64,000 bases of DNA, taken from assembly GCA_022496185.1 (NCBI GenBank), contig WTXG01000066.1, forward strand, positions 62,001 through 126,000, in the 5' to 3' direction. The notes beneath the pieces were generated by a model. It was not told the DNA's origin. It worked only from the letters and a program-made list of their open reading frames with translations, and searched no databases. Source of the stretch: Multifurca ochricompacta. Taxonomy: Eukaryota > Basidiomycota > Agaricomycetes > Russulales > Russulaceae. Of this stretch, positions 22,824 to 56,013 are shown one piece after another. The stretch's first letter is position 1; each line of letters starts with the position of its first letter. The translations under genes and the position numbers were made by a program.

Positions 22824-23088
22824 TGTTGAACACAGAAGATGTTCGGTGATGCTTCAGGCATCAGGTGATTAGATTAGCTACTTTGTGGATTAGATTAGAT
22901 ATCGGAGTTTCGGACTATTTACATTATCTTTATTACTTTCTTTCTCACACTCCGCAGTAGCTGACTGATACACCATGTAACATGTGATTTCTGTATTGGC
23001 CAATGGCCTTTATCCCTCTTGTTTATTGTTTGGACTCTGTCCGGCACTTGTGGACTTATTCCCAGTGCACAGACCACCCCTTGGATTG

Positions 23089-23095
23089 TATATAA
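23089..23095 (+). promoter_or_regulatory. TATA box of the element A LTR promoter
   Basis: TATATAA lies 34 bp upstream of the point where the repeated leader segment a1 begins (23123), which is the expected distance to a transcription start. The same box is present at the equivalent position of the full-length related LTRs. Confidence 0.65.
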
Positions 23096-23115
23096 GGGTG
23101 TCTGTTTCGTCCCTT

Positions 23116-23150
23116 ACACTTCAGAGTTCTCTTCACCTCTGAAGTGTAAG
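23116..23150 (+). repeat. Inverted repeat over the predicted start site and 5' splice site
   Basis: CTTACACTTCAGAG and its complement CTCTGAAGTGTAAG flank a roughly 10-nt loop. The right arm contains the GTAAG donor of intron 1. The stem is kept in the related LTRs while the loop sequence differs between families. Confidence 0.7.
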
Positions 23151-23327
23151 TCCCACCTCTCTTACTTACTACCTTACCTTTGACTAACCGTCTCATGTAG
23201 ATAACTTGTCTTTCTAGGTGTGTAGTATAGTATAAATAGAGTTCTCTTCACCTCTGAAGTATAACTTGTCTTTCTAGCCTTACACGCTAACCAACAGTCA
23301 GTATGCTGCGCACATGCCTGTTTCACA

Positions 23328-23341
23328 GGTTATGGGCCCTG
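23328..23341 (+). other. Primer-binding site matching the anticodon arm of initiator tRNA-Met
   Basis: GGTTATGGGCCCTG abuts the 5' LTR. Its complement CAGGGCCCATAACC has the CAU anticodon loop flanked by stem bases of initiator tRNA-Met, as in Drosophila copia, which is primed by a 5' half-tRNA fragment rather than by the tRNA 3' end. Confidence 0.75.
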
Positions 23342-24262
23342 AGCAAGCTTAACTGATCTGTCTTTTCTTTATTTGATCAGTCCACCAACTTTCTTCAAGC
23401 TCACAGCTTTAAGACTTCGTCTTTCCCAATCAGTCTCACAGTGAGCTTCGATTTTTTTCCCCTTGCCCTTAACTGTCCACAAGGTGGTGCGCTTTATGTG
23501 CCCACCTTGATCTGTCTGGCTAGTCCCTCAGGGGATTCTTGCAAAAGGTGACGAGGGACCCTAAGCGGGTGAAACACCTTGAGTTCCTCATGTGCGCTCT
23601 AAGTAAATAGTATTCATAGTTGTAGCTGGGTTTTCGTCCCATCCATAGACTTAGTAGGCCACTTGCCCAGAAGGCTTGAGGCTATAGGTTCAGTCAATGC
23701 TTGGCTTGATCCGTAAGCCGGGTTTAGCAACCCGCTGGTAGAGTTTAGGGTCTAGAACAAGGCATGGGTAGTCACTCCCATGACGCTTGGGCTCGATACA
23801 AGTAGGCTTGAACTACTATAGTATTTACACAGTAGCTAGAGGGTTTTGTCTCTGGGCAGAAGTACCTGCTGCTTTCATTGGGGGTTCGCCCCAACCAGAG
23901 GAAACCCAATAGTCTACTATAGTCATGGCCCCAATCATCTAGGGCTTAATCATGGACTCCACCACCAGCACTAGAGGAAGGGCTCTATACCCTTTGTCTC
24001 TAGTGGAACTTGTGGTTGGCTCCTCCATGACATGACTCCCCTTCTATTTACACAGTATCCGCCTGATGTGGCTTGGGATCTGTTGTAGAATGGGGTTAGA
24101 CAGCCTACTATACTACTTAGAAGTCGCACATCAGAGGCAGGACTTTTTTAAGTTCTGAAGCATAGCGCCACAGAATGGACGGGCCCTCTTAAATGAGACC
24201 TGGACAACTGGTTCTAACTGCTCCTTGGAACCAGGATCAAACCTTTTTTAAAATCATCTCAA

Positions 24263-27200
24263 ATGTCTTCCATTGTCTTCCCCCCCACGTTCAAGTTTGA
24301 CAAACTTGACGGATCTAACTGGCAGCAGTGGTCGGTGTCCTTCACTGCCCTGTTGAGGATCAATGGATGAAGAGGCATATCACACATGATGCCCCTGAAT
24401 TCCTCAATGCTCCTAAGCCAGAGGATGGAGAGAAGGACGATGAGTATGCCAAGTGTTTTGCGCTTTGGTCGGAACCCATATACCAGGAATGGAACAGGGT
24501 GGAGGAAGTCCTCATGGGAGTTCTGGTGATGGTAACATCACCGGAAACATACTCCCAAATTGCCTCTGACAGAACTTACCTTCTGTCAATGCCAAGTATG
24601 AGCGTTTGGAATCGCTTTATGGCTCAGTAGGTAGCATGGCCACCTACAACTTGTGGTGTTCTGTATCCTCCTTCCGCTTGGAAGAAGGAAAGCAATTCAG
24701 ACCCCAGTTGCAGCATGTGTTGGATGTGAGGAGTACCCTCAAGGAAAATGGGATGGAGATCTCTGATCTCCAGATGAGCTTTATTTTGCTCCAATCCCTA
24801 CCTCCATCCTACTCGCCATTGCTGGCTCTATCCTGGCGTCAGGTCCTCCTGACCGCCTTTCCCCTCAGGACCTTGTACAAAGGTTCCTAAATGAGGAAAG
24901 CTGACTTGCCGGCCCCGCAGGAAGTGGTGTTGGGGCTGCCCTTAACAAGGCAGCCCATGTCAACAAAAACAAAATTAAAAAACAAGTATCTTTCACGCCA
25001 CCTCCTGCAGGTGCATCATCATCCAATGATGTCACCTGCTTCTATTGCCAGAAGCCGGGCCACAAGGCAAATGAATGTCGGCAAAGGAAACAGGACAGAG
25101 CCAATGCTGATGCAGGCAAAAAGGGCAACAAGAGGAAGGGGCAAGGCCCCAGTATACATAATAACTCCACACAAGTAGCTACATAGTTAATGGTAGTGGC
25201 AGAATACAGGAGGTGCATGAGACACCTCGCATTTCACTTTATATGATGACCAAACATACGCAAGAAGTCGATGATGGCAGCAATCCTTGGATGATGGACA
25301 GCGGAGCCACCACCATTTACACCATACTTAGATGATTTCTCTGAGTATTCCCACACAAGGGACACTCGGTGACAATTGGTGATGGCTCCAGTAGTCCAAG
25401 TCGAAGGAACAGGCAAAGTTATACTCAAAACTCGAAACAATTATGAGTTAGAGTTAAATAACGTCTTCTATATGCCTGGTAGTGAAAGAATACTATCGAC
25501 AAGCTGCATCACAGACAAAGGCGGATCAGTGGAATTTTCTCCATCTGAGGTCAAAATAAAGTACAATAATGCAATTATAGCGGAAGGAGTCAAGGCTATG
25601 GGACTCTATTGGGTCTTTGGGAAAACTATGCAGAATCTAAATACTGCTTCCCACAAATCTGCATCAACTAGCCTTGATACCTGGCATTTGCGCATGGGTC
25701 ATATGTCAAAAGAGGCCCTCAAAAGACATGCTCCTAAGGCTGTAAAAGGCCTTAGTATTGATAATAGCCAAGTGGAAGACAAGCCGTGTTATGGCTGTGA
25801 AATGGGAAAATCACACCGTCTTCCATTCCCTCCCTCTCAAAAGAGAGCTTCAGCACCCTTGGAAGTCATTCATAGTGACCTAGTTGGTCCTTTGCAATCC
25901 ACTTCAATTCAAGGGAACCTATACTTCGCCACTTTCATAGACGACTTTAGCAGAACCGCTTAGTTGTTACTATGAAAGCTAAAAGTGAATTTACATCGGT
26001 CTTCAGTAACATTAAGGCATTCTGGAAAATAAAACAGACAGGAAAATAAAGACCTTACATACAGACCGAGGTGGCGAATTCGTCAATAGGGAGCTGAAGT
26101 CAATACTTGAGAAGGCTGGCATAGAGCATAAATTGACAATGCCATATTCCCACAACAGAATGGAAGGGCTGAAAGGTTCAACAGAACCATCATGGAAAAG
26201 GCCACCAGTATGCTGCATCATGCTGGTCTTTCCCTTGGTTTCTGGGAATGTGCAGTGCGAACAGCATGTCACATATACAATAGAACACCATCCGTTCAAT
26301 AAGTGGAGGACACCGCTTGAGCTTCTGGATGGGGACATTCCAGATGTCTCATACTTTAAAATATTTGGCTGTTTAGCCTACTATACTGTCCCAGAGGACA
26401 AAAGACGTAAACTGGATCACAAAGCCAGGGAGACAGTCTTTGTCGGGTATGCACCCCACTCTAAAGGATATCTTCTTTGGGACATGCATACTCGATCCTT
26501 CGTTTGTCAAGAGATGTGACATTTGATGAAGGGTCCTTCCCATCCAACCTTGCCAAGGACAGCAAGGGAAACAAAAGGAAAAAGTTACACCTTTTGTCTT
26601 AGAATTGAGAGGCCTGTCCAGCCTCAACCAGCAATAGCCACAGTTCCTCAGGCTCCTGAAGACAAGGATGCCGAGGTTGAGGAACAGGAGGTAGTGGAAC
26701 CTCCTCAATTAAATCCTGAGCCTACCACACCCGAAGAGAAGACACACATGATGTCACTATCTATCAGATGCCTCCATCCCAAGTCATGGAACCATCAGAA
26801 CTCCCCGAAAGAGCCCGTGCCAAGAGACAATCTAAGAAAAAGATTGTTGGCAAAATTTCCCAACCAGTATTTACTAGGGAAAGTCCACGCTCTCAGCAAC
26901 GTGATTGGGCTGTGCAGGAAGATCTAGATCTTGATACTGCCCATCCCAAACGATCACGTCGCATGAATCCTCGATTCTATAATGAGGATAATGCTGAGTT
27001 TGTGCAGGGTTCTTCCAGACTTGGCATATGGAATTGCTTATGCCGCAGGTGTCTCTTATAGAGATCCCCTGACTTTTCAGGAGGCAATGAGTCTGACAAC
27101 GCCAATGAATGGTTTGAGGCATGCAAATATGAAATAGATGCCTTAGATAAACTAGATGTGTGGCGCCTTGAGGATCTTCCAGAAGGAAGAAAGGCAGTGA

Positions 27201-28604
27201 AATCTAAATGGGTTTTTAAGTTGAAACCAGATGGACGTTTCGTGCTAGGCTTGTGGCAAAAGGGTTCACCCAAGTAGAAGGAGTGGACTTCGACGAAACA
27301 TTTTCCCCAGTCGCCAGATTTGAGTCACTTAGACTATTACTAGCATTAGCTACGCTAGAGGATTGGGAAATCCACCAAATGGATGTCAAATCGGCATTCC
27401 TACATGGCGATCTGGATGAGGAAATTTATATGGAGCAACCAGTTGGTTTCGTCGTTGCTGGGCAAGAGTCCAAAGTTTGTAGGCTACAAAAAGCATTATA
27501 TGGCCTCAAACAAGCCTCCTGAGCATGGAATCTTCAATTCCATGGTGTTCTTAATGAACTAGGCTTTACTCGGACGTACTCTGATGCAGGAGTATACGTG
27601 TTTCATCAAAAGGAGGGGGATGATTCACTCTATGTCATTCTCTATGTAGACGACATTACTATACTTGGATCTTCCAATGATAAGATAACGTGGCTGAAGT
27701 CATCATTATCTAGGCGATATGAGATGACTGACTTGGGAGAAATCCAGTCATACCTTGGAGTTAATATCACCAGGGATCGTCCTAATAAGACGATGGAGAT
27801 TGACCAAGCAGCCTACGTTTTATCTATTATTGAGAAGTTTGGGATGAGGGATTCCAACCGAGTATATACTCCTCTTCCCTCTGGCGCTGATGTACATCTG
27901 GTCAAGTTTGATGGCCAGGCATCTACTTCTGAAATAAAGAAGTACCAACAGTTGATGGGGTCTCTGCTATGGGTGCAGATAGGAAGCAGACCCGACATCA
28001 GTTTTGCTGTGGCGCGCCTTAGTCAATATGCTTCCAACCCCTCTCAGATCATATGCGACTTGCAAAATATGTCCTAAAATATCTAAATAGTACAAAGGAC
28101 TGCAAGTTGCGGTATTCTGGAGGGAATGGGGAGAGTGGCCTTCATGGCTATGCAGATTCCTCATGGGGAGATCAAGAGGACTGCCACTCCACCTCAGGCT
28201 ACATGTTTTTCTTAGCAAATGGCGCTATTTCATGGTGTTCCAGAAAGCAGAAAACAGTAGCACAGTCCACCACTGAGGCTGAATATATGAGCCTCTCTGA
28301 GGCTGCAAATCAGGCAGCGTGGTATAGGACTTTTATGGAGGAATTAGGGTATGAGGTATCCTCCCCTATACTACTCCACTGTGACAATAAGGGTGCCGTG
28401 GATTTAGCGCTGAACCCAGTCACAGGAAGGCGGTCAAAGCATATTCCTATCAAGTACCATGCCATTAGGGGGTACATTGAATCGCACATAATTAACTTAG
28501 TGCGTACCCCCACAGGTGAGATGCTGGCGGATGGCTTTACTAAGTCTCTACCAAGAGCATCGTTTGAAACCATGGTCAAAGGACTTGGACTTATGCTGAA
28601 ATGA
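24263..28604 (+). pseudogene. Gag-pol polyprotein of copia element A (several one-base frame breaks)
   Basis: Gag starts at ATG 24263 (SSIVFPPTFKFDKLDGSNW) and resembles the UBN2 copia gag. A zinc knuckle (CFYCQKPGHKANEC) lies near 25040. The protease region has WMMDSGATT near 25290. The integrase contains the CYGCEMGKSH motif and HTDRGGEFVN with a YSPQQNG-type motif near 26145. RT has [19 protein letters not shown] (27385) and YVDDITILG (27645). RNase H carries ADSSWGDQEDCHSTSGY and EAEYMSLSEA, and the stop is at 28602-28604. The coding sequence is split over about ten frames by one-base changes, plus an in-frame stop at about 27521. The C run at 26149-26151 has three bases where the related minus-strand copy (45308-45311) has four. 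Confidence 0.88.
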
Positions 28605-28857
28605 GGAGCTGGAATCTGGAGACTTTGTACACCAGTCTCACTTTCCCACCATGCCACATGAGCATGTTCTCGACCTTGAGAGTGACGCAAGAGGTGTGTA
28701 GACTTGCATAAGCGAATCTACAACTTGTATGCAAAGCTCACAAAGAGAGTTAGAGAAGTTGGATCTCTGGCTGGCGATATGCTCATTTAATTGTGATGGC
28801 AGTGTGCTCATCCAACTCATTTCCCATCCATGACCAGATGCCTTCAGCATGGAGGGA

Positions 28858-29355
28858 TGTTGAACACAGAAGATGTTCGGTGATGCTTCAGGCATCAGGT
28901 GATTAGATTAGCTACTTTGTGATTAGATTAGATATCGGAGTTTCGGACTATTTACATTATCTTTATTACTTTCTTTCTCACACTCCGCAGTAGCTGACTG
29001 ATACACCATGTAACATGTGATTTCTGTATTGGCCAATGGCCTTTATCCCTCTTGTTTATTGTTTGGACTCTGTCCGGCACTTGTGGACTTATTCCCAGTG
29101 CACAGACCACCCTTGGATTGTATATAAGGGTGTCTGTTTCGTCCCTTACACTTCAGAGTTCTCTTCACCTCTGAAGTGTAAGTCCACCTCTCTTACTTAC
29201 TACCTTACCTTGACTAACCGTCTCATGTAGATAACTTGTCTTTCTAGGTGTGTAGTATAGTATAAATAGAGTTCTCTTCACCTCTGAAGTATAACTTGTC
29301 TTTCTAGCCTACACGCTAACCACAGTCAGTATGCTGCGCACATGCCTGTTTCACA
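28858..29355 (+). repeat. 3' LTR of element A
   Basis: It is identical to the 5' LTR except for six missing single bases (for example GTGG to GTG, ACCCC to ACCC, TCCC to TCC, CTTTG to CTTG). Segments: a1 29155-29177, intron-like 29178-29230, b1 29231-29247, a2+b2 29268-29307. Confidence 0.88.
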
Positions 29356-30153
29356 AATGAAACTAGAATAATAAAATAATAATGTAAATAAAGATCCTTT
29401 TAATCTTCTGAACATAAACAACAATTTTGAGGAATCTTGAGTAGCCATAAATGAATGCATTGTGTCCAAGTGCTTATCTCCTGACTGGGATGGCCTGGGC
29501 CATTTATCCAAAATGCGCAGAAATGCAAAGATCAGTCATGCTTGTATAAAATTTAAACCAGAATAATAAAATAAAAATGGAATAATAAATTATCTTAATC
29601 TTATGAACATAGAATAGGAATCTTTGAGGGATCTTGAGTAGCCATAAATGAACATGTTGTGTCTGAGTGTGTATCTCCTTGACCGGGATGGCCTGGGCCG
29701 ATTGTCTGAAATGTGCGATGCAAGTAAAGAACTTGCATGTGTTTCATTTTATGGGTAACCCAGGTATCAAAACAATTATCCAGGGGTTACCCCTGCAATG
29801 TCTATGTGTTCATTAAATTTTTTTGCATTCTGTGTGGTTATCTGACAGGCTATTCATCAATGTTCTATAACATCCTATCTAATCATCTCTGTATACTGGA
29901 TTTTAGTTGTGCTTGTATAAAATTGAAAGCAGAATAATAAAATAAAAATGGAATAATGAATTATCTTAATCTTCTGAACATAAAACAAGAGCCATTGAGG
30001 GATCTTAAGCAGCCACAAATAAACGCATTGTGTATCTTCTTGGTCTGGGAAGGCCTGGGCCAGTTATCCAAAATGTGTGATGCAAGTAAAGAACTTGCAC
30101 ACTTTTCACGGGTGACCCACAGGTAACCTGTGGGTATGGGTACAGGTACCAAC
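29356..30153 (+). repeat. Left inverted-repeat arm (inner part), with a repeated AT-rich unit
   Basis: The arm continues after element A and matches the right arm in reverse (46787-47690) as far as about 29845. A unit containing AGAATAATAAAATAAAAATGG and then GAGGGATCTTGAGTAGCCATAA, followed by a GGCCTGGGCC string, recurs near 29355, 29540 and 29905. The segment ends in GTAACCTGTGGGTATGGG-like motifs at the LTR of element C. No gene is seen. Confidence 0.65.
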
Positions 30154-30664
30154 TGTCAAACAATCATGCTGCTGGTTATACTGACTGTGGTTAGTAGCAG
30201 TGAGGCTAGAATAAGACAAGTACTTCAGAGGTTAGAAGAACTCTGTATTATACTACACTACTGACCTAGAATAAGACAAGTCTATAGAACGTTAGTCTAA
30301 AGGTAGTAGAGAGTAGAGTAGAAGGAACTTACACTTCAGAAATTAGAAGAACTCTGAAGTGTAAGAGATGAAACAGACACCCTTATATACCCATGGGGGC
30401 CAGGGGAAATGGTCTGTGCGCACTGGGAATAAGTCCACAAGTGCTGGATAATAAACAATGAGGGATAAAGGCCATTGGCCTAAGAGATATCACGTGCTTA
30501 CTGTGCATTACTAAGGACCTCACTTATCAGCTGAGTAAGGTGAGAAAGAAATGTAATAAAGATATCATAAAAAGTCCGAAACTCCGGAACCTAATCTAAT
30601 CTTATCTACAGCTAAAGCAATTCCTAGATGCCTGAAGCATCTCCAGACATGTCCTGTGTCAACA
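30154..30664 (-). repeat. 3' LTR of element C
   Basis: Terminal TGTCAAACA and TGTCAACA mark a 511-bp LTR of the B family on the minus strand. The leader copy and the spliced-type copy share the private string ACTTGTCTTATTCTAG, but segment a differs by two bases between the copies, consistent with mutation after insertion. Confidence 0.8.
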
Positions 30665-30932
30665 TCCCTCCATGGTGAAGGCATTGATCATTTGATGGAA
30701 ATGAGTTAAATGAGCACACTGCTGTTCACAATTGAACAGACATGTCACCAGCCAGAGATCCAACTTCTCTAACTCTCAAGCACAGTTTGTGAGCTTTGCG
30801 TGCAAATTGTAGATTTGCTTATGCAAGCTGAAATGCCTGACATATTTGAATGTCTACTTCTGGCAAGCTCACACCACTTGTGTCACTCTCGAGGTCGAGA
30901 ATGTGCTCATGTTGCATGGTGGGAAAGTGAGA

Positions 30933-31443
30933 TGTTGACACAGGATGTGTCTGGAGATGCTTCAGGCATCTAAGGTTCGCTTCAGCTGTAGATTAGATTA
31001 GATTAGATATCGGAGTATCGGACTTTTTATGTTATCTTTATTACACTTCTTTCCTTCTTACTCAGCTGATTAGTGATGGACTTAGTAATGCGCAGTAAGC
31101 ATGTGATATCTCTTTGGCCAATGGCCTTTATCCCTCTCTGTTTATTGTCCGGCACTTGTGGACTTATTCCCAGTGCGCACAGACCATTTCCCCTGGCCCC
31201 TATGGGTATATAAGGGTGTCTGTTTCGTCTCTTACACTTCAGAGTTCCTTCTATCTCTGAAGTGTAAGTCCCATTTACTTTACTCTCTACTTCCTTTAGA
31301 CTAATGCTCTATGTAGTACTTGTCTTTTCTAGGTCAGTAGTGTAGTAATATAGAGTTCCTTCTATCTCTGAAGTTACTTGTCTTTTCTAGCCTAACACGC
31401 TACTAACCACAGTCAGTATAACCAGCAGCATGATTGTTTGACA
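30933..31443 (+). repeat. 5' LTR of element B
   Basis: TGTTGACACAGG to GTTTGACA. Segments: a1 31241-31263, intron-like 31264-31316 (GTAAGT to TGTAG), b1 31317-31332, spacer from GTCAGT, a2+b2 31352-31390, U5 from 31391. The join a2/b2 (GAAGT-TACTTG) is exactly that expected from splicing the first copy. Confidence 0.9.
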
Positions 31444-31457
31444 GGTTATGGGCCCTG
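31444..31457 (+). other. Primer-binding site of element B (initiator tRNA-Met anticodon arm)
   Basis: GGTTATGGGCCCTG directly follows the LTR, identical to the site of element A; the downstream bases differ. Confidence 0.75.
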
Positions 31458-35705: not shown

Positions 35706-35718
35706 TTACCCCTTCTGT

Positions 35719-39310: not shown

Positions 39311-41339
39311 GATAATGCCAGTGATTGGCTTGAGGCATGTCAATATGAAATTGACGCCTTAGAAAAACTTAAAGTGTGGCGCCTTGAAGACCTTCCTGAA
39401 GGTAGAAAGGCTGTAAAGTCCAAGTGGGTCTTTAAATTGAAAGCAGATGGACGCTTTCGTGCTAGGCTTGTAGCAAAAGGGTTCACCCAAATAGAGGGGG
39501 TGGACTTCGATGAAACCTTCTCCCCAGTCACCAGATTTGAGTCTCTTAGACTATTATTAGCATTGGCCGCGCTTGAGGATTGGGAAATCCACCAGATGGA
39601 TGTCAAATCGGCATTCCTACATGGCGATCTGGATGAGGAGATTTACATGGAGCAACCTATTGGTTTTGTCGTTGCTGGACAAGAGTCCAAAGTTTGTAGG
39701 CTACAGAAGGCTCTGTATGGCCTCAAACAAGCTTCCCGAGCATGGAACTTGCAATTCCATGCAGTTCTCAATGAACTGAGCTTTACTCGGACATACTCTG
39801 ATGCAGGAGTATATGTGTATCATCACCAAGAGGGGATGGTTCACTTTTCGTCATTTTATATGTTGATGACATCACTATACTTGGGTCCTCCACTAAGAAG
39901 ATTCAATGGCTGAAGGACTCTCTATCTAGCCGATATGAGATGACCGATCTTGGCGAAATCCAGTCCTACCTTGGAGTTAACATCACCAGGGATCGTCCTA
40001 ACAAGACACTGGATATAGACCAGACAGCCTATGTATCCTCCATAGTTGAGAGGTTTGGAATGGGGGATTCCAACCCAGTATATACTGTTGACATGGGATG
40101 TGTCTGGAGATGCTTCAGGCATCTGAGGATCGCTTTAGCTGTAGATAAGATTAGATTAGGTTCTGGAGTTTCGGACTTTTTACGATATCTTTATTACATT
40201 TCTTTCTCACCTTACTCAGCTGATTAGTGATGCCCTTAGTAATGCGCAGTAAGCATGTGATATCTCTTTGGCCAATGGCCTTTATCCCTCTCTGTTTATT
40301 GTCCGGCACTTGTGGACTTATTCCCAGTGCGCACAGACCATTTCCCCTGGCCCCCATGGGTATATAAGGGTGTCTGTTTTGTCCTTTACACTTCAGAGTT
40401 CTTCTTCCTCTGAAGTGTAAGTCGTCTTTGCTTTACTTTCTACTTTTCCTTTGACTAACGTTCTCTGTGTAGATAACTTGTCTTTTAGGTCAGTAGTATA
40501 GTATTATAGAGTTCTTCTTCCTCTGAAGTATAACTTGTCTTTTAGCCTTACACGCTACTAACCACAGTCAGTATAACCAGCAGCATGATTGTTTGACATA
40601 TACTCCTCTACCCTCTGGCGTGGATGTTCATTTGGTCAAGTTTGAAGACCAAGCATCTACCTCTGATATTAAGAGGTATCAGCAGTTAATGGGGTCTCTG
40701 CTTTGGGTGCAGATTGGAAGCAGACCTGACATTAGTTTTGCTGTTGCACGCCTTAGTCAATTTGCTTCCAACCCTTCCCAGCAGCACATGCGACTAGCAA
40801 AGTATGTCTTAGCCTATCTAAATGCTACAAAAGACTACAAGTTGCGCTATTCTGGAGGGAATGGTGAAGTTGGCCTTCATGGCTTTGCAGATTCCTCATG
40901 GGGAGATCAAGAGGACCGCCACTCCACCTCAGGCTACGTCTTTTTCCTTGCTAATGGAGCCATTAGCTGGTGTTCCAGGAAGCAGAAGACAGTAGCACAG
41001 TCCACCACTGAAGCCGAATATATGAGCCTTGCTGAGGCTTCAAATCAGGCTGCGTGGTACAGGACGTTCATGCAGGAATTGGGATATGAAGTTAGTTCAC
41101 CCATACAACTGCATTGTGACAATAAGGGTGCAGTAGATCTTGCATTAAACCCTGTCACAGGAAGGCGATCAAAGCACATACCAATAAAGTACCATGCCAT
41201 TAGGGAGTATGTAGAATCACACCAGATTGACTTGGTGCGAACTCCCACTGGAGAGATGCTGGCAGATGGCCTTACAAAGTCTCTGCCCAGATCATCTTTT
41301 GATCTCATGGTAACTGGATTTGGACTAGTGCTGGAATGA
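39311..41339 (+). pseudogene. RT-RNase H part of element B pol, interrupted by a solo LTR
   Basis: Coding resumes after element D with DNASDWLEACQYEIDALEKL. RT motifs are [20 protein letters not shown] (39600), YGLKQASRAWNLQFH and a YVDDI box that falls in a shifted frame because the G run at 39832-39835 has four bases. The element A homologue has five. After the solo LTR (40086-40598) the frame continues TPLPSGVDVHLVKFEDQAS. RNase H follows (FADSSWGDQEDRHSTSGY; EAEYMSLAEA; DNKGAVDLALNPVTGRR), with a stop at 41337-41339. Confidence 0.87.
40086..40598 (+). repeat. Solo copia LTR inside element B
   Basis: A B-like LTR (TGTTGACATGGG to GTTTGACA) with target duplication TATAC on both sides. Its loop sequence (TTCTTCTTC) differs from that of element B but is the same in both of its leader copies. 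Confidence 0.9.
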
Positions 41340-41591: not shown

Positions 41592-42102
41592 TGTTGACAC
41601 AGGATGTGTCTGGAGATGCTTCAGGCATCTAAGGTTCGCTTCAGCTGTAGATTAGATTAGATTAGATATCGGAGTATCAGACTTTTTATGTTATCTTTAT
41701 TACACTTCTTTCCTTCTTACTCAGCTGATTAGTGATGGACTTAGTAATGCGCAGTAAGCATGTGATATCTCTTTGGCCAATGGCCTTTATCCCTCTCTGT
41801 TTATTGTCCGGCACTTGTGGACTTATTCCCAGTGCGCACAGACCATTTCCCCTGGCCCCTATGGGTATATAAGGGTGTCTGTTTCGTCTCTTACACTTCA
41901 GAGTTCCTTCTATCTCTGAAGTGTAAGTCCCATTTACTTTACTCTCTACTTCCTTTAGACTAATGCTCTATGTAGTACTTGTCTTTTCTAGGTCAGTAGT
42001 GTAGTAATATAGAGTTCCTTCTATCTCTGAAGTTACTTGTCTTTTCTAGCCTAACACGCTACTAACCACAGTCAGTATAACCAGCAGCATGATTGTTTGA
42101 CA
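41592..42102 (+). repeat. 3' LTR of element B
   Basis: 511 bp, one CpG transition from the 5' LTR; preceded by the purine tract ATGGAGGGA. Confidence 0.9.
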
Positions 42103-43050: not shown

Positions 43051-43551
43051 TGTTGAACACAGAAGATGTTCGGTGATGCTTCAGGCATCAGGTGATTAGA
43101 TTAGCTACTTTGTAGATTAGATTAGATACCGGAGTTTCAGACTTTTACATTATCATTATTACTTTCTTTCTCACATTCCACAGTAGCTGACTGATACACC
43201 ATGTAACATGTGATTTCTGTAGTGGCCAATGGCCTTTCTCCCTCATGTTTGTTGTTTGGACCTTGTCTGGCACTTGAGGACTTATTCCCAGTGCACAGAC
43301 CATCCCTTCAAAGAGTATATAAGGGTGTCTGTTTCATCTCTTACACTTCAGAGTTTCTTCTACCTCTGAAGTGTAAGTCGTCCTCTCTACTATCCTCACT
43401 ACCTTAGACTAACTCTGTATATAGAACTTGTCTTTTCTAGGTGTGTAGTATAGTGTAATAGAGTTTCTTCTACCTCTGAAGTAACTTGTCTTTTCTAGCC
43501 TAACCCGCTAAACTTTACAGTCAGTATGCTGCGCCTCATGCCTGTTTCACA
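43051..43551 (+). repeat. A-type LTR at the junction of two element fragments
   Basis: TGTTGAACAC to TGTTTCACA, plus strand. The flanks are different parts of pol (left, RT C-terminus of C; right, RT N-terminal part of an A-family fragment), and no target duplication is seen. About 330 bp of RT present in A and B is absent here. The two leader copies share the private loop TTTCTTCTAC. Confidence 0.75.
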
Positions 43552-46284
43552 ACATCCATCTGGTGGATTTCCCAATCCTCTAGTGTAGCTAGTGCTAGTA
43601 GTGATCTAAGAGATTCAAATCTGGCAACTGGGGAAAATGTTTCATCAAAGTCCACCCCTTCTATTTGGGTGAAGCCCTTTGCCACGAGCCTAGCACGAAA
43701 CCGTCCATCTGGTTTCAGCTTAAAGACCCATTTTGACTTGACTGCCTTTCTTCCTTTTGGAAGATTCTCAAGGCACCACACATTAAGTTTATCTAAGGCA
43801 TCAATTTCATATTTACATGCCTCAAGCCATTCATTGGCATTCTCAGACTGCATTGCCTCCTGAAAGGTCAGGGGGTCTCTGTAAGAGACGCCTGCAGCAT
43901 TTAGCAACTCCATATGCCCAAGTCTGGAAGAACCCTGCACGAACCCAGCATTATCCTCATTATAAAATCGAGGGTTCATGTGACATGAACATTTGGGACA
44001 GGCAGTATCAAGATCTAGATCTTCCTGCACAGCCCTGTCACATTGTTGAGAATGTGGACTTTCCCTAGTAAAGACTGGTTGGGGAAGTCTGCTGACATTC
44101 TTTTTAGACTGTCTCTTGGCAAAAGTTCTTTGGGGGAGTTCAGATGGTTCCATGATTTGGGATGGAGGTGTCTGATAGATAGTTATATCATGTGTCTCAT
44201 TTTCGGGTGTGGTAGGCTCAGGATTTACTTGAGGAGGTTCCACTACCTCCTGTTCCTCAACCTCAGCTTCCTTGTCTTCAGTGTCAAACAATCATGCTGC
44301 TGGTTATACTGACTGTGGTTAGTAGCGGGTTAGGCTAAAAGACAAGTAGTACTTCAGAGGTTAGAAGAACTCTATACAACTATACTACTGACCTAAAAGA
44401 CAAGTAGTCTACAGAAGACGGTTAGTCAAAGGTAAGAAAGAGCGTATAGTAAAAGGAACTTACACTTCAGAGGTTAGAAGAACTCTGAAGTGAAAGAGAC
44501 AAAACAGACACCCTTATATACCCATGGGGGCCAGGGGAAATGGTCTGTGCGCACTGGGAATAAGTCCACAAGTGCCGGACAATAAACAGTGAGGGATAAC
44601 GGCCATTGGCCAAAGAGATATCATGTGCTTACTGCGCATTACTAAGGGCATCACTAATCAGCTGAGTAAGAGAGAAAGAAATGTAATAAAGATATCGTAA
44701 AAAGTCCGAAACTCCGGAACCTAATCTAATCTTATCTACAGCTAAAGCGTTCCTCAGATGCCTGAAGCATCTCCAGACACATCCTGTGTCAACATTCAGG
44801 AGCCTGAGGAACTGTGGCTATTGCTGGTTGAGGCTGGACAGGCCTCTCAACTTCTAAGACAAAAGGCATAACTTTTTCCTTTTGCTTTCCCTTGCTGTCC
44901 TTGGCAAGGTTGGATGGGAAGGACCCTTCATCAAATGTCACATCTCTTGACAATACAAAGGATCAAGTATGCATATCCCAAAGGAGGTATCCTTTAGAAT
45001 GGGGTGCATACCCAACAAAGACTGTCTCCCTGGCTTTGTGGTCCAGTTTACGTCTTTTGTCCTCTGGGACAGTATAATAGGCTAAGCAGCCAAATATTTG
45101 AAGTATGAGACATCTGGAATGTCCCCATCCAGAAGCTCAAGCGGTGTCCTCCACTTATTAGAGCGGATAGGCATTCTATTGTATATGTGACAGGCTGTTC
45201 GCACTGCACATTCCCAGAAACCAAGGGACAGACCAGCATGATGCAGCATACTGGTTGCCTTTTCCATAATGGTTCTGTTGAACCTTTCAGCCCTTCCATT
45301 CTGTTGTGGGGAATATGGCATTGTCAATTTATGCTCTATGCCAGCCTGCTCAAGTATTGACTTCAGCTCCCTATTAACAAATTCACCACCTCAGTCTGTG
45401 TGTAAGGTCTTTATTTTCCTGTTTGTTTTATTTTCCAGGAATGCCTTAATGTTACTAAAGACCAATGTAAATTCACTTTTAGCTTTCATAGCAACAACTA
45501 GAGCAGTTCTGCTAAAGTCATCTATGAAAGTGGCAAAGTATAGGTTCCCTTGAATTGAGGTACATTGCAGAGGACCAACCAGGTCACTATGAATGACTTC
45601 CAAGGGTGCTGCAGCTCTCTTTTGAGAGGGAGGGAATGGAGGACAGTGTGATTTTCCCATTTCACAGCCATAACACAGCTTGTCTTCCACTTGGCTATTA
45701 TCAATGCTAAGGCCTTTTACAGCCTTAGGAGCATATCTTTTGAGGGCCTCTTTAGACATATGACCCATTCATAAATGCCAGGTATCAAGGCTACTTGATG
45801 CAGATTTGTGGGACGCAGTATTTAGATTCTGCATAGTTTTCCCAAAGACCCAATAGAGTCCCATAGCCTTGACACCTTCTGCTATTATTGTATTATTGTA
45901 CTTTATTTTGACCTCAGATGGAGAAAATTCCACTGAGCCACCTTTGTCTGTGATGCAGCTTGTTGACAGTATTCTTTCACTGCCAGGCATATAAAAGACA
46001 TTATTTAACTCTAACTCATAATTGTTTTGAGTTTTGAGTATGACTTTGCCTGTTCCTCCGACTTGGACTATGGATCCATCACCAATTGTCACTTGATGTC
46101 CCTTATGTGGGAAATACTCAGAGAAATCATCTAAGTATGGTGTAAAATGAGTGGTGGCTCTGCTGTCCATCATCCAAGGATTGCTGCCATCATCAACTTC
46201 TTGCTTGGTCAAAGTATAAAGTGAAATACGAGGTGTCTCATGCACCTCCTGTATTCTGCCACTACCATTAACTATGGTAGCTAC
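43552..46284 (-). pseudogene. Internal pol fragment of an A-family copia element (minus)
   Basis: Minus-strand coding from the gag-protease border (ETPRISLYTLTKQEVDDGSN, WMMDSRATTHFTPYLDDFSE) through integrase (MGHMSKEALKRYAPKAVKGL; MPYSPQQNGRAERFNRTIME) to the first RT motif (DWEIHQMDV). It closely matches element A but lacks several of its one-base losses. It is interrupted by a solo LTR at 44282-44794 and bounded by A-type LTRs in opposite orientations. Confidence 0.8.
44282..44794 (-). repeat. Solo B-type LTR with target duplication TTCAG
   Basis: TGTCAAACA to GTGTCAACA with TTCAG at 44277-44281 and 44795-44799. In its own orientation both leader copies carry the private join GAAGT-ACTACTTG and the ending GTCTTTTAG. 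Confidence 0.9.
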
Positions 46285-46786
46285 TGTGAAACAGGCATGT
46301 GCGCAGCATACTGACTGTTTGAAGTTAGCGGGTTAGGCTAGACAAAGACAAGTTGCTTCAGAGGTAGAAGAAACTCTATAATACTATACTACTGACCTAG
46401 ACAAAGACAAGTTCTATATACAAGAGTTAGTCTTAAGGTATGATAGATAGTAGAGTAGGAACTTACGCTTCAGAGGTAGAAGAAACTCTGAAGTGTAAGA
46501 GACGAAACAGACACCCTTATATACCCCAAGGGATGGTCTGTGCACACTGGGAATAAGTCCTCAGGTGCCGGACAAAGTCCAAACAATAAACAGAGGGAGA
46601 AAGGCCATTGGCCACTACAGAAATCACATGTTACAAGGTATATCAGTCAGCTACTGCGGAATGTGAGAAAGAAAGTAATAAAGATATAGTAAAAGTCCGA
46701 AACTCCGGTATCTAATCTAATCTACAAAGTAGCTAATCTAATCACCTGATGCCTGAAGCATCACCGAACATCTCCTGTGTTCAACA
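46285..46786 (-). repeat. A-type LTR, minus orientation
   Basis: TGTGAAACAGG to GTGTTCAACA. It joins directly to the end of gag on its left, so the primer site and gag are missing. Both leader copies share the private variants GAAGC (instead of GAAGT) and TTTGTCTAG. Confidence 0.8.
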
Positions 46787-48255: not shown

Positions 48256-48260
48256 AGTGT

Positions 48261-48877
48261 TGTAACACCTGGTGTGGGCGTTCGTCACGACGTGTGATAG
48301 GTCGCGTAGCAAAACTATGAAGTCAGGTGTGTACTGTATTCCAAGCACACGGAGTTCAGGTGAGAAGTCAATACCAAGGAGCTAATCCCTTAGTACCAGT
48401 GAGCGGAAGAGTGCCAGAAGCACTGAGACGATTCAAAGGTCGGGTCTTAGGAATCACCCAGAAGGTAATGCACCAAGTCGATTAAGAAGTTGAGTCTAAG
48501 GTATACAGGCTATCTAGGCAGGCCTTATATACGTAGTAGAGGTCGGAGTCTGAATCGGAGTATCGTACTCGGTGTATCAACGAAGTTGTAATCTATCTAA
48601 AGAGGGAACAGAATCAAGTGGGCCAGGTGAGAATATACGTAGATGAATCTGGTATAGTCACAGTTCTGGTGGGAAAATACATAAGCATCCTTGTGTAAAG
48701 TATGAGTCAGAGATAAGCACAGCCTCGAGTCAGAGATAAGCACAGCCTCAAGTCAAAGATAAGGAACAAATAGGTACAAAGAAAGTCGTAACATAGTCAA
48801 CAAAGGGATAAACAGGGCCAAAGGTCATGTCACGTGGAAGAAAGAGAAAATAAGACAATGCTAGGGGGTTTGTAACA
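48261..48877 (-). repeat. 3' LTR of element E
   Basis: TGTAACACC to TTTGTAACA. It contains an extra tandem copy of GTCAGAGATAAGCACAGCCT plus flanking bases. Confidence 0.9.
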
Positions 48878-48908
48878 TTACCCCCTCTCTAAGTCCTAGC
48901 AGAGCCAG

Positions 48909-51900: not shown

Positions 51901-53671
51901 CTGTCCCATATGTCATAATTTCTTTCCGCCGATGAGAATGTCTCTGAGTAGAATGCGATGGGATGAAGAATCCCTCCAGTATCTCTCTGTGATAAGACTG
52001 CGCCATTGGCATACATGGAGGCATCGACCTCTAGTTCAAAGGGCTTGGCCAGATCAGGTTGGATAAGGACTGGCTCGGAACTGATAATTGCTTTTATTCG
52101 GTCGAATGCTTGCTGTTGTAATTCATCCCAGTGCCATGGCACATCCTTTTTTAACAAGTCGTTCAGTGGTTGGGCAATAGCTGAAAATCCCTTGACAAAG
52201 CATCGATAGAAATTGCAAAATCCAATGAACGATCTGACGTCTTTGGTACACTGAGGGGCGGTCCATTCTTGAATGCCTTGTACCTTTACCGGGTCCATGC
52301 GCACTTGCCCCCCTTCCAGGATAACACCTAGATATTCGACGGTCTTTTGTTCAAAGGAGCATTTGGCAGGTTTCAAATAAAGGTCATGTTTTGCCAGGAT
52401 TTCTAGTACTTCATGGACTTGGGCTCGGTGGTGGTGAATGTCATCTTTCATGGCTACCAGGATATCATCCATATATACTACGACCTCTTCTGTGAGGATG
52501 AGATCTCGGAAAATGTGATTCATCATGGCCTGGAAGGTCACCGGCGAGTTTGTCAAGCCAAAGAACATGACGTTGGGTTCGAAGAGTCCTTGATTGGTCT
52601 TGAAGGTGGCTTTGGGCTGGTCGCCTTCTCGGATACGAATGTTATTATATCCCCAACGAACATCCATCTTTGAAAACAGGGCTTTATCATGCATTTTATC
52701 AATAATTTCTGAGATCAGAGGGAGCGGGTAGTTGTTTTTCACCGTGAGTTCGTTAATCCGTCTGTAGTCCTGTACCGGTCACAGTTTCCCGTCCTTCTTT
52801 TTGATGAAAAAGAAGGGTGAGGCATAAGGTGAGTTTGAGGGTTGTATATATCCTTTTGCCAAGTGTTCTTCCAGGAAGGTAGAGAGCGCTTCCTTTTCTG
52901 GCTGTGACAGGGGGTAGATTTTACAGTCTACTGATTGCAGGGCGTCCGGGACAAAGTCAATGGCATGGTCCCAAGGTTGAGAGGGAGGGAAGCGTTGCGA
53001 TTCTTCCTCTGAGAAAACCTTCCAATGTCGATGATACTCCACAGGGACCACTTCTTCAAATGTTTTTTCTGGATTCTTCTGCGCCTCTGCCTGGGCCAGC
53101 TCTGATGCTTTTGTAACGTAACAATACACCTGATCCATGGGTTCTACATCACTCCAGGTGATGGCCAATCCCATGACAATAGCATGGGTGAGAGGGTGTC
53201 GTGCAGCATAGTCGTATCCAAGGGACGTAATGATGACTGGGTAGAAATCTTTATCCATGGTGGCCTCTGCCCAGTTGATCTTGGGTTCAAATGCTGCCAG
53301 CCATGGGTATCCTAGGACCATATCCTCCTCTCCTAGATCTGTGATGAGGAAGTGAAGCTGCTTTGTTCGTTCCCCAACCTGCACTTCTAAATCACAGCAA
53401 TGTGTGATTTTCCCAGCTTTGTTAGCTGTTCCATCTATATTCCAAATGTTCTTCTCTTGGGGGAGTAACTGTGTCCCCAATCCTAGCGTCCTCTGGAGTC
53501 GTTGGCTAATGAAGTTGTCTGTAGCTCCAGAGTCAATCAATATTCGTCTGTCAGCTGTCTTCTGTTTGGTTTCAAAGTGTACTGGTATTTTTAATGATTT
53601 GAAACGACTAGTGTACACAGAAGTTACATGGAGTGCTCTTGCCCAGGCCGATGGGGTCAAGCCGATCAAAA
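48909..53671 (-). pseudogene. Pol polyprotein of element E, one open frame broken only by nine TGA codons
   Basis: Read from about 53671, frame -1 to gag: protease (RRILIDSGATDNFISQR), RT (YIQPSNSPYASPFFFIKKKD; VVVYMDDILVAM), RNase H (ELEVDASMYANGAVLSQRD), integrase with a zinc-finger region (GHLGIANTYTLTKRDYWWPN), catalytic core (AYHPQTDGQLERTNQWLEQY), KIHPVFHANLLTPY, and a chromodomain (LHYLIKWKGFPDANSSWEPA). Beyond the chromodomain the frame continues with a long extension holding several CCHC zinc knuckles and an acidic tail (DDYLSLVQDNDGVPI), ending at TAG 48909-48911. In-frame stops are all TGA (52779, 51870, 51693, 51663, 50856, 49557, 49218, 49164, 49020); family alignment expects Arg at several, as CGA. 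Confidence 0.9.
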
Positions 53672-55195
53672 ATCCTTTTGGCCAAAGGCCTTGTCAACAA
53701 TCAAGGTGCGTACCGCCTCGTCTTCGTTCATCATGTGCTCCCAGATAGCTGCCACTTTCTGTTCTTTAGTTTTTGGGGCAGTTACTGGGTTTTCTTTTAC
53801 TGGGGTAGGTAGGTTTTGTACTGCCGGTGTCGTGGCAGTGGCGGCTATTGTTGCTTCAGTGGCTTGAACTGTTTTCTTTGGGCAGAATTGTGACATGTGT
53901 CCTTGTGCTTGGCAGTGAAAACAACGCCCTTCCTTCATAAGGTTTTTCTTTTCATCGTTGGTAAGGGCTGCTCGGGCCTTAGTGTGGTCTGCCGATGTGT
54001 CCATGGCATTGGGGTCTTGAGGATGGGTGGGTTTTACCCCAAATGCCGCCTTCCACTGATCACGGGTTTTACCCTTCTTTGTATCAACTCCAAATTGTGT
54101 TTGGAAGTCTAGATAGTCTTGCTGCTGTGTTCTGGCAGCACTTGTCCACTGGCTCCATGATTCGGGGTGATGGAACTGGATGATGTTTTTCACCAGGGGG
54201 TTGGGTAACCCCTGGGAGAAGAGGTCGAGCATTGCCTCTTCATTCACATCATACCCTGCTCTTTTGGCCAGGTTGCGAAACTTAGCTACATAGCCATCCA
54301 AGTCCCCTCTCTCCATTTTGAGGGACTTTAGTTCTCTGGCAGCCTTCTGCTTGGCCTGCCCATCTGTGAAGGCGTCTTTGAATCTTTGCGCCACTACATC
54401 CCACAGATCTTCATCTGTGGTTCTGGTTCTGGCCATAACTCTATCGTTCAGCCATTCAATCTGTTCCATTGTCCAATCATCGACGGAGTCCCCTCTGATA
54501 AGTGAGAGGAAGAGGTTGGTCTGTTGAAAGGGGTTTACGATCTGCGGGATGTCATGGTTGAAATTTTTGAACGTCTCGAACTCAAGCATGAACTTTTTGC
54601 TCTGTGATCGGTCACCAGTAAACGTGGTTGGCAGGACTCCCGTAAGGTGTCCTGATGGGGGAGGGAGGTTCGGAGCAGGGACAACGGGAGCGGGGTCAGG
54701 TAGCTGTGCAGCAATGGTCGACATTGTTGGATATGTAATAGTCAGGGTGTCTGAGGTTTGTTGTGTAATCTGGGGAGAGACTAAAGCAGATGTTCTGAAC
54801 GTAGCACTCTCGGGTGCAACTGTCTGAGCCGTAAAACTAGTGGCTATGACTTGTGCGTCTTCGCTGCTTTCTTCGATGTATTCTTCTGGTTCTGAATCTG
54901 TGACGATGGCTGGAGGATTCTCTCTCCAAGGTCCTAGGCCGTATTCTGGTGGGGCAGGTCCTGTAGTAACCCAGGAACGATGGCTTCTAGAGTAGCAGAT
55001 ACGGTACCAGACCCTCTTCTGTTCGTTGTATTCAACTGGCTGGTACTGGTCGTTGTGATAGATGTAGTATCCAAACTCGGTTTCAAAATCTTTCCAGATG
55101 GCAGAGCCAAGGACTTGTTGTGAAAGATTATCCTCGTCTCGGCGGTCGATGAGTTCTTTGTTGTGCAAGGTCTGACTGCAGCTGGATGAAGCCAC
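53666..55195 (-). CDS. Gag protein of element E (509 residues, intact)
   Basis: Structural protein that packages element RNA. The ATG is about 20 bp inside the 5' LTR boundary. A central retrotrans-gag domain (SKKFMLEFETFKNFNHDIPQ; WLNDRVMARTRTTDEDLWDV; LKSLKMERGDLDGYVAKFRN) is followed by a Pro/Thr-rich part and one zinc knuckle, CFHCQAQGHMSQFC. It ends KAFGQKDF and TGA. Pol overlaps in the -1 frame at a TTT-TGA site, so pol is probably made by frameshifting. Confidence 0.9.
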   Translation of the reverse strand: MASSSCSQTLHNKELIDRRDEDNLSQQVLGSAIWKDFETEFGYYIYHNDQYQPVEYNEQKRVWYRICYSRSHRSWVTTGPAPPEYGLGPWRENPPAIVTDSEPEEYIEESSEDAQVIATSFTAQTVAPESATFRTSALVSPQITQQTSDTLTITYPTMSTIAAQLPDPAPVVPAPNLPPPSGHLTGVLPTTFTGDRSQSKKFMLEFETFKNFNHDIPQIVNPFQQTNLFLSLIRGDSVDDWTMEQIEWLNDRVMARTRTTDEDLWDVVAQRFKDAFTDGQAKQKAARELKSLKMERGDLDGYVAKFRNLAKRAGYDVNEEAMLDLFSQGLPNPLVKNIIQFHHPESWSQWTSAARTQQQDYLDFQTQFGVDTKKGKTRDQWKAAFGVKPTHPQDPNAMDTSADHTKARAALTNDEKKNLMKEGRCFHCQAQGHMSQFCPKKTVQATEATIAATATTPAVQNLPTPVKENPVTAPKTKEQKVAAIWEHMMNEDEAVRTLIVDKAFGQKDF

Positions 55196-55216
55196 GGTGG
55201 GGGAGACTCGACTTAA

Positions 55217-55810
55217 TGTAACGCCTGGTGCGGGCGTTCGTCATGACGTGTGATAGGTTGTGTAGCAAAACTACGAAGTCAGGTGTGTACTGTATTCCAA
55301 GCACACGGAGTTTGGGTGAGAAGTCAATACCAAGGAGCTAATCCCTTAGTACCAGTGAGCGGAAGAGTGCCAGAAGCACTGAGACAATTCAAAGGTCGGG
55401 TCTTAGGAATCACCCAGAAGGTAATGCACCAAGTCAATTAAGAAGTCGAGTCTAAGGTATACAGGCTATCTAGGCAGGCCTTATATACGTAGTAGAGGTC
55501 AGAGTCTGAATCGGAGTATCGTACTCGGTGTATCAATGAAGTCGTAATCTATCTAAAGAGGGAATGGAATCAAGTGGGCCAGGTGAGAATATACGTAGAC
55601 GAATCTGGTATAGTCACAGTTCTGGTGGGAAAATACATAAGTGTCCTTGTGTAAAGTATGAGTCAGAGATAAGCACAGCCTCGAGTCAAAGATAAGGAAC
55701 AAATAGGTACAAAGAAAGTCATAACATAGTCAACAAAGGGATAAACAGGGCCAAAGGTCATGTCATGTGGAAGAAAGAGAAAATAAGATGATGCTAGGGG
55801 GTTCATAACA
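55217..55810 (-). repeat. 5' LTR of element E
   Basis: TGTAACGCC to TTCATAACA, followed by the duplicated target AGTGT. No TGG-type primer site follows it; the bases next to the LTR on the minus strand are TTAAGTCGAGTCTCCCCC. Confidence 0.9.
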
Positions 55811-56013
55811 AGTGTTCTTCTTCCCTCTGAAGTGTAAGTTGCTTTTACTTTACTTTCTACCTTCCTCTGACTAACATTCTCTGTGTAGATAACTTGTCTT
55901 TAGGTCAGTAGTAATAGTATTACAGAGTTCTTCTTCCCTCTGAAGTATAACTTGTCTTTAGCTCAACCACTACTAACCACAGTCAGTATAACCAGCAGCA
56001 TGATTGTTTGACA
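55811..56013 (+). repeat. 5'-truncated B-type copia LTR
   Basis: Only the leader half of the LTR remains, from within segment a1 to GTTTGACA. It still shows GTAAGT...GACTAAC...GTAG between a1 and b1 and a fused a2+b2 copy with the same private variants (TTCTTCTTCCC; TCTTTAG). Confidence 0.8.

What the first reader, a model, noticed from the sequence alone, without database searches (positions are those of the whole stretch)
22824..56013. Copia LTRs carry an intron-containing leader and, next to it, the spliced version of the same leader
In all ten A/B-group LTRs (22824, 28858, 30154, 30933, 40086, 41592, 43051, 44282, 46285, 55811) segment a is followed by a GTAAGT...(GACTAA)...TAG sequence of about 55 bp and segment b. 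Shortly after, a and b recur fused, with exactly that sequence missing. In LTR 22824: a1 23123-23145, intron 23146-23200, b1 23201-23217, a2+b2 23238-23277. The fused joins differ between LTRs (GAAGT-ATAAC, GAAGT-TACTT, GAAGT-AACTT, GAAGT-ACTAC, GAAGC-AACTT) and each is what splicing its own first copy predicts. Segment a1 begins 34 bp after TATATAA, as a cap site would. An ordinary tandem duplication would not remove an intron precisely. I know of no described LTR with this design.
Basis: partly seen in the sequence, partly recalled or inferred. Interest (0 to 1): 0.96.

Follow-up and report, generated by a model that had tools for sequence, protein, structure and literature searches.

The report
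Retrotransposon ends carrying their spliced copy
In a mushroom genome, the ends of a common Copia retrotransposon carry a short leader interrupted by an intron-like segment and, right after it, the same leader without that segment; the two copies change together from element to element, likely because the second is rewritten from spliced RNA each time the element copies itself.

Summary
All ten window LTRs carry a1–i–b1–X–a2b2: i is a 51–56 bp GT…CTAAY…TAG segment, a2b2 is a1+b1 without it. In 99 canonical LTRs sampled from the same genome (Multifurca ochricompacta), an alignment told nothing about introns puts the missing segment on GT…AG in 97; copy 2 equals the join of its own copy 1 in 91 (shuffled mean 3). 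a and b vary between LTRs (21 and 42 versions), yet both copies change together on the tree (32 of 38 and 42 of 49 changes). Within an LTR the copies differ by 0.23%; the two LTRs of an element by 0.63%: the copies were alike at insertion. Best explanation (RNA untested): transcription starts at a1; i and a second intron (X–a2b2) are spliced; strong-stop DNA copied from the spliced 5′ end lands on a2b2 of the 3′ LTR and rewrites it. A 10-bp hairpin across the inferred cap site could mask the splice site in the 3′ LTR only, fitting the lack of intron loss (0 against 1,268). Foamy viruses use comparable logic; ten literature searches listed no such LTR.

The parts
22824..23327 (+). 5' LTR of a Copia element, TG...CA, 504 bp; followed by GGTTATGGGCCC (putative primer-binding site)
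23089..23095 (+). TATATAA
23117..23146 (+). Inverted repeat CACTTCAGAG...CTCTGAAGTG: predicted 10-bp hairpin whose 5' arm starts upstream of the inferred cap site and whose 3' arm covers the 5' splice site
   Evidence: 85 of 99 LTRs pair 10 of 10; slid control
23123..23145 (+). a1, inferred first exon; inferred cap site at its left edge
23146..23200 (+). Intron 1 (i): GTAAGT...GACTAAC...TAG, 55 bp
23201..23217 (+). b1, inferred micro-exon
23218..23237 (+). X spacer, begins GTGTGT directly after TAG: inferred 5' splice site of intron 2
23238..23277 (+). a2b2: copy of a1+b1 without i; ends in pyrimidine tract + TAG; inferred landing site (3' R) and 3' end of intron 2 (23218-23277)
28858..29355 (+). 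3' LTR of the same element: i 29178-29230, copy 2 29268-29307; preceded by AGCATGGAGGGA (polypurine tract)
24570..28074 (+). Copia coding region of the first element, in broken pieces: gag (24570), gag-pre-integrase (25373), integrase (26016), RVT_2 (27523)
31241..31390 (+). LTR 30933: a1 31241-31263, i 31264-31316, b1 31317-31332, X 31333-31351, copy 2 31352-31390
40395..40545 (+). LTR 40086: a1 40395-40416, i 40417-40472, b1 40473-40488, X 40489-40507, copy 2 40508-40545
41900..42049 (+). LTR 41592: i 41923-41975, copy 2 42011-42049
43350..43498 (+). LTR 43051: i 43373-43424, copy 2 43460-43498
55813..55961 (+). LTR 55811, fragment starting in a1: i 55834-55888, b1 55889-55903, X 55904-55923, copy 2 55924-55961
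46338..46489 (-). LTR 46285: a1 46489-46467 (ends GAAGC), i 46466-46414, b1 46413-46397, copy 2 46377-46338 (also GAAGC)
44335..44486 (-). LTR 44282: a1 44486-44464, i 44463-44409, b1 44408-44393, copy 2 44373-44335
30206..30355 (-). LTR 30154: a1 30355-30333, i 30332-30282, b1 30281-30266, copy 2 30245-30206 (two bases differ from a1)

Best explanation
Each LTR holds a leader interrupted by an intron-like segment (a1-i-b1) and, about 20 bases on, the same leader without it (a2b2), and a2b2 is likely rewritten at nearly every replication cycle from the spliced 5' end of the element's RNA during minus-strand strong-stop transfer. Shown by the sequence: the layout, the precise GT...AG difference, and the joint evolution of the two copies. 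Inferred, in order. (1) Transcription starts at AGAG, the left edge of both copies. (2) The 5' leader loses intron 1 (i) and intron 2 (X-a2-b2, b1|GTNNGT...TAG|U5), so the genomic RNA begins a-b-U5. (3) Reverse transcription from the primer-binding site copies this into strong-stop DNA ending in the complement of ab. (4) That end anneals to a2b2 in the unspliced 3' LTR of the RNA and is extended through X-b1-i-a1-U3, giving U3-a1-i-b1-X-(new ab)-U5. The intron therefore survives reverse transcription, because the site used for transfer is its own spliced product, downstream of it. (5) The intron in the 3' LTR escapes splicing because the RNA there includes CACTTC, upstream of the cap site, which closes a 10-bp hairpin over the 5' splice site; the capped 5' copy lacks this arm.
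For: Unconstrained two-block alignment: 97 of 99 canonical LTRs give GT...AG (95 of them as a unique optimum), 91 have no mismatch. 21 a1, 42 b1 and 55 joined haplotypes, 50 among exact LTRs; own match 91 against a shuffled mean of 2.96. Of 4,851 LTR pairs, both copies differ in 4,745 and only one copy in 14 (summed). On a tree from U3+intron, 32 of 38 a changes and 42 of 49 b changes of copy 1 occur on the same branch to the same state in copy 2 (17 and 19 on internal branches); shuffled means 1.0 and 0.5. Copy 1 against copy 2: 9 of 3,874 sites, 0.23%, against 24 of 3,807, 0.63%, between the LTRs of 8 elements: the copies were alike at insertion. In the 17 closest pairs b evolves about as fast as the intron (0.109 and 0.12), with equal rates for b1 and b2. 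X starts GTNNGT in 98 of 99 (two of them read by hand past a shifted block end) and GCCAGT in one; intron 2 is 55-61 nt, intron 1 49-56. Same anchors: copy 1 with intron 1,268, without 0; doubled X at ab spacing 0. Hairpin: 85 of 99 pair at all 10 positions, mean MFE -13.3 against -2.6 kcal/mol without the upstream arm, 5' splice site less open in 93 of 99.
Against: No RNA evidence: cap site, splicing and poly(A) site are unmeasured. The variant LTRs (ab 45, aib 5, aibXaibXab 2) are also what recombination between the direct repeats a1/a2 or b1/b2 would give, so they do not decide. In 2 of 8 canonical LTR pairs (L026/L027, L022/L023, both with matching target duplications) one LTR has the same one-base deletion in b1 and b2, which a change only at transposition does not predict. 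These LTRs carry other one-base deletions (in window LTR 28858 all 6 differences within the LTR are such deletions), so assembly error is likely but unproven. The hairpin arms hardly vary, and the variants do not compensate (GAAGC 4, ATCT 9 of 99), so there is no covariation support. Intron 2 has no clear branch point. The primer tRNA was not found. The leader parser asked for a near match to CACTTCAGAG (2 substitutions allowed), which favours that arm.
Confidence: 0.75

Rival explanations
1. Copy 2 arose once from a spliced transcript, and the two copies are kept alike afterwards by gene conversion or repeated template switching between them, without splicing in each cycle.
For: Two of 8 LTR pairs show the same one-base deletion in b1 and b2 of one LTR; copy 1-copy 2 divergence (0.23%) is below LTR-pair divergence (0.63%); repeat-mediated deletions probably occur (ab-only 45, aib 5).
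Against: Tracts of about 22 and 16 bp on either side of a 53-bp difference would sometimes carry the intron along: intron loss from copy 1 is 0 against 1,268, and the only two intron-bearing copies 2 found by pattern are whole extra units. The boundaries fall on GT...AG in 97 of 99.
Confidence: 0.13
2. The copy is renewed from spliced RNA, but only intron 1 is spliced; X and one ab copy are lost by slippage of reverse transcriptase between the direct repeats before or during transfer.
For: ab-X-ab in a leader RNA would be a slippage-prone direct repeat; the intron 2 branch point is weak.
Against: Unslipped products (abXab, aibXabXab) would be expected and exact patterns find 0 in the genome. 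Slippage late in copying would preserve the old a2b2 rather than rewrite it. The b1|GTNNGT and TAG ends are conserved as for a real intron.
Confidence: 0.09
3. Ordinary inheritance: one ancient event, and each subfamily difference was carried in both copies by block recombination between subfamilies.
For: U3 and leader seem to be reassorted in some close pairs (17 pairs with U3 1.1% but intron 12% different).
Against: Every new a or b haplotype must first arise in both copies: 21 a and 42 b versions; 32 and 42 joint changes on the tree.
Confidence: 0.02

Closest known systems
Foamy viruses (spumaretroviruses): splice donor in R, masked by RNA structure in the 3' LTR (PMC3694450; abstract and one results section read)
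   Same: A splice donor lies just downstream of the cap inside the LTR; RNA that starts 13 bases upstream (3' LTR copy) folds differently from RNA that starts at the cap, and the authors conclude that this presumably blocks U1 there. The hairpin proposed here follows the same logic.
   Different: What I read describes no spliced copy of R stored in the LTR; here the LTR holds both forms, and the donor's intron is only about 53 bp and lies inside the LTR.
BARE (barley Copia element) distinct RNA pools (PMC3735527; abstract and section list read)
   Same: A Copia element that makes spliced and unspliced RNAs and uses specific RNAs for reverse transcription.
   Different: The spliced RNA there is a subgenomic gag message; no intron inside the LTR or spliced duplicate is described in what I read.
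Ty1/Copia LTR retrotransposons
   Same: gag-integrase-RT order, TG...CA LTRs, 5-bp target duplications.
   Different: Known R regions are one colinear stretch at both RNA ends (established retroviral model, recalled); here the 5' and inferred 3' R come from different places of the LTR.

Membership tests
Ty1/Copia LTR retrotransposon | gag - integrase - RVT_2 order | tested here: met
   Window element 22824-29355: Retrotran_gag_2, gag_pre-integrs, SH3/rve, RVT_2 in that order, on broken frames
Ty1/Copia LTR retrotransposon | LTRs TG...CA with 5-bp target duplication and polypurine tract | tested here: met
   7 of 10 candidate element pairs have exact 5-bp duplications, one has one mismatch, two do not match (window pair, L044/L036); AGCATGGAGGGA or ACCATGGAGGGA before 3' LTRs
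Ty1/Copia LTR retrotransposon | Primer-binding site complementary to a host tRNA | tested here: inconclusive
   GGTTATGGGCCCTG follows 5' LTRs and resembles the initiator tRNA anticodon arm (recalled), but no such tRNA gene was found
Spliceosomal intron (intron 1) | GT...branch point...AG, length usual for the host, removed in RNA | tested here: inconclusive
   GTAAGT 99 of 99 (partly by choice of search pattern), TAG 97 of 99, CTAAC or close variant, 49-56 nt; host intron lengths not measured; RNA not available
Spliceosomal intron (intron 2, X-a2-b2) | GT...branch point...AG | tested here: inconclusive
   GTNNGT 98 of 99 (one GCCAGT), AG end, 55-61 nt; no clear branch point
Foamy virus-type LTR | Splice donor in R, exposed at the 5' end and masked by structure at the 3' end | tested here: inconclusive
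   Predicted fold only; Copia, not spumavirus, by protein content
Tandem duplication in an LTR | Copies colinear, then diverging independently | tested here: not met
   The copies differ by the intron and change together

The most novel reading that the evidence does not exclude
A new way to replicate an LTR: the terminal repeat R is produced by splicing. The LTR stores both the gene form (exon-intron-exon) and the mature form of its leader; the mature form is the landing strip for first-strand transfer and is renewed from RNA in every cycle, which lets a retroelement keep an intron through reverse transcription. A hairpin across the cap site tells the 5' LTR from the 3' LTR, so the same intron is spliced at one end and kept at the other. 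More than 1,200 LTRs form a natural record of splice-site choice and strand-transfer joints.
Probability: 0.6. Interest if true: 0.95.

Novelty: new variant of a known kind. Interest (0 to 1): 0.92.

Why it matters
Reverse transcription normally erases introns, and R is taught as one identical stretch at both RNA ends. Here an LTR appears to keep an intron by carrying its own spliced product as the transfer site. If right, it separates the 5' and 3' R, gives retroelements a way to own a leader intron, and offers an independent solution, parallel to foamy viruses, to using one LTR differently at the two ends. It also makes the joining point of first-strand transfer readable from genome sequence in over a thousand natural copies.

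Tried and rejected
Ordinary tandem duplication: rejected. One splice from a1 straight to b2: rejected, since a2 ends GAAGT or GAAGC, with no AG at the a2/b2 boundary. Skipping b (a|U5 LTRs): 0 by pattern in the genome. Start of transcription at a2 without splicing: would not couple b1 to b2. The control over all 256 dinucleotide pairs of the window scan is uninformative: other pairs give up to 43 places and GT...AG gave 9, because other tandem repeats swamp it. A mixed element (ab-only 5' LTR L044, canonical 3' LTR L036) was dropped as evidence, because its target duplications do not match. Primer tRNA search failed. Search of viral contigs for the leader: 0. Literature: ten searches answered, three of them with no paper at all; none showed an LTR of this design in its listing; the library lacks most subscription journals. 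PMC5542766 was looked at by passages and concerns an engineered vector leader.

Sampling: 114 sequences (window + 113 loci) gave 130 leaders with a near-match TATA box and cap region, stretches that read alike counted once: 99 canonical, 24 ab-only, 5 aib, 2 long. The ab-only, aib and long classes were sought out, so these are not genome proportions. A recount found 111 distinct intron-bearing copies in those sequences, 108 inside parsed leaders and 3 not parsed (the 55811 fragment, one in L004, L030); L026 was also missed by the parser. All four show copy 2 equal to their own join (two by script, L004 and L026 by eye). They are not in the 99. Of the 24 ab-only leaders 23 could be parsed, with 20 distinct ab; 11 match a canonical haplotype. 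Genome counts come from exact patterns, which miss mutated copies; one search does not itself check copy 2.
Full report
What is there. The window lies in a 53.8-Mb assembly. An ORF at 56680-59727 matches a Multifurca ochricompacta protein at 99% (residues 1-500 searched) on a contig of the same length as the window's, 172,925 bases, so the host is this mushroom. The LTRs belong to a Copia element: gag, gag-pre-integrase, integrase and RVT_2 lie in that order, in broken pieces, between the LTRs at 22824 and 28858. LTRs run TG...CA; GGTTATGGGCCC follows 5' LTRs and a purine tract precedes 3' LTRs; 7 of 10 candidate element pairs have exact 5-bp target duplications.

The observation. In the 22824 LTR: TATATAA at 23089, a1 23123-23145, i 23146-23200, b1 23201-23217, X 23218-23237, a2b2 23238-23277, then U5 to 23327. 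The same layout is in all ten named LTRs. Genome-wide, exact patterns find 1,265 copies of the intron motif, 1,240 TATA-to-U5 stretches of the right length and 1,268 a1-i-b1-X stretches; the reversed patterns find none.

Is the difference an intron? I parsed 130 leaders from 114 sequences: 99 canonical, 24 ab-only, 5 a-i-b and 2 longer. For the 99 I aligned copy 2 to copy 1 as two ungapped blocks with no information about splice sites. The best gap starts with GT and ends with AG in 97 (95 as a unique optimum), and copy 2 equals the join without mismatch in 91. Intron 1 is 49-56 nt with GTAAGT, a CTAAC-like branch point and TAG. Lineage-specific details are copied too: where a1 ends GAAGC in window LTR 46285, a2 also ends GAAGC. 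Four further intron-bearing leaders that the parser missed show the same (and by eye).

Joint evolution. The 99 LTRs have 21 versions of a1 and 42 of b1. Own-copy matches number 91 against a mean of 2.96 when copies 2 are shuffled. In 4,851 LTR pairs both copies differ in 4,745, only copy 1 in 2, only copy 2 in 12 (summed). On a tree from U3 plus intron, copy 1 has 38 a and 49 b changes; 32 and 42 of these fall on the same branch to the same state in copy 2, 17 and 19 on internal branches, against about 1 and 0.5 in 200 shuffles. Copy 1 and copy 2 differ at 9 of 3,874 sites, while the two LTRs of 8 elements differ at 24 of 3,807. So the copies were practically the same when each LTR was inserted, although b changes about as fast as the intron between close LTRs. 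This calls for copying in nearly every cycle, not a single ancient duplication.

Mechanism. First-strand transfer is the step that joins the copied 5' end of the RNA (R-U5) to its 3' end (U3-R) (established retroviral model, recalled). If the 5' leader is spliced to a-b-U5, strong-stop DNA ends in the complement of ab and pairs along its whole ab part with a2b2 of the 3' LTR; extension then restores U3-a1-i-b1-X in front of a freshly copied ab. This needs a second splice, b1|GT...TAG|U5, that removes X-a2-b2. X begins GTNNGT in 98 of 99 LTRs (GCCAGT in one), copy 2 ends in a pyrimidine tract and AG, and the piece is 55-61 nt long. That b looks like the end of an intron follows, because b2 would be one. 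Without the second splice the LTR should grow (aibXabXab) or lose the intron (abXab); exact patterns find neither (0 and 0).

Variants. Writing out all splicing and landing combinations predicts ab-only, aib and aibXaibXab as side products; the genome holds 45, 5 and 2 by pattern. At least two ab-only elements have both LTRs in that form with target duplications that match exactly (L049/L050) or with one mismatch (L047/L048), so that form arose during replication. The same variants could come from recombination between the direct repeats, so they agree with the model but do not prove it.

Why the intron is not lost. The RNA's 3' LTR carries the same intron, yet intron-free copies 1 are 0 against 1,268 with the same anchors. 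CACTTCAGAG and CTCTGAAGTG form a 10-bp hairpin over the 5' splice site: 85 of 99 pair at all positions, mean energy -13.3 against -2.6 kcal/mol for RNA that starts at AGAG, and the splice site is less open with 60 upstream bases in 93 of 99. Sliding the arm by 1-4 bases drops pairing from 9.86 to 1.6-5.0 of 10. CACTTC lies upstream of the inferred cap, so only the 3' copy would form the hairpin. Foamy viruses do a similar thing at their R-region splice donor (PMC3694450). This step is a prediction; the arms vary too little for covariation, and the variants do not compensate.

Against. There is no RNA evidence. Two of 8 canonical LTR pairs show the same one-base deletion in both b copies of one LTR. 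The affected LTRs carry further one-base deletions, as does window LTR 28858, which suggests assembly errors, but in-place conversion would also fit. The primer tRNA and the poly(A) site are unknown.

Literature. Ten searches of open-access PMC listed no LTR with this layout; many subscription papers are not held, so absence from print is only provisional.

Noticed in passing
U5 start of the sampled LTRs, e.g. window 23278-23297: Right after copy 2 comes a CCTAACCCGCTAAC-like stretch, a few variable bases, then ACAG|TCAGTA. It varies between relatives and looks like a further branch point with a 3' splice site, so alternative splicing past it is possible.
   Followed up: partly
leaders of sampled LTRs: In the 17 closest LTR pairs (U3 1.1% different) the intron differs by 12%, b by 11% and the last bases of X by 26%: the leader turns over about ten times faster than U3, fastest at the X/a2 joint, where strand transfer would end.
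   Followed up: partly
window 28858-29355; L026; L023: In some elements the two LTR copies differ largely by single-base deletions, which suggests assembly indel errors; they may also explain some broken frames.
   Followed up: partly
L003, L007, L040, L043, L049, L051: In these six loci LTRs sit close to or inside other LTRs of the family; in L051 an LTR ends just before the TATATAAGGG of the next, and L049/L050 is inserted at CCCCT shortly upstream of a TATATAAGGG. Possible targeting of LTR promoters.
   Followed up: no
window 49557-55195 (-): A second retroelement in pieces: Retrotrans_gag, aspartyl protease, RVT_1/RNase H, Tf2-1-like SH3 and a chromodomain, that is, a Ty3/gypsy chromovirus-like element.
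   Followed up: no
window 56680-59727 (-): 1015-aa NB-ARC/TPR (NLR-like) ORF with several close relatives in the same fungus, and a 522-aa antisense ORF without a Pfam match.
   Followed up: no
window 55813-56013: LTR fragment that begins inside a1, almost at the inferred cap site, and ends at the LTR 3' end.
   Followed up: no
L114, L115: The only two GGGCCCATAACC sites in the genome not followed by T lie in a stretch whose 105 printed bases read the same at both; ARAGORN finds no tRNA there.
   Followed up: no
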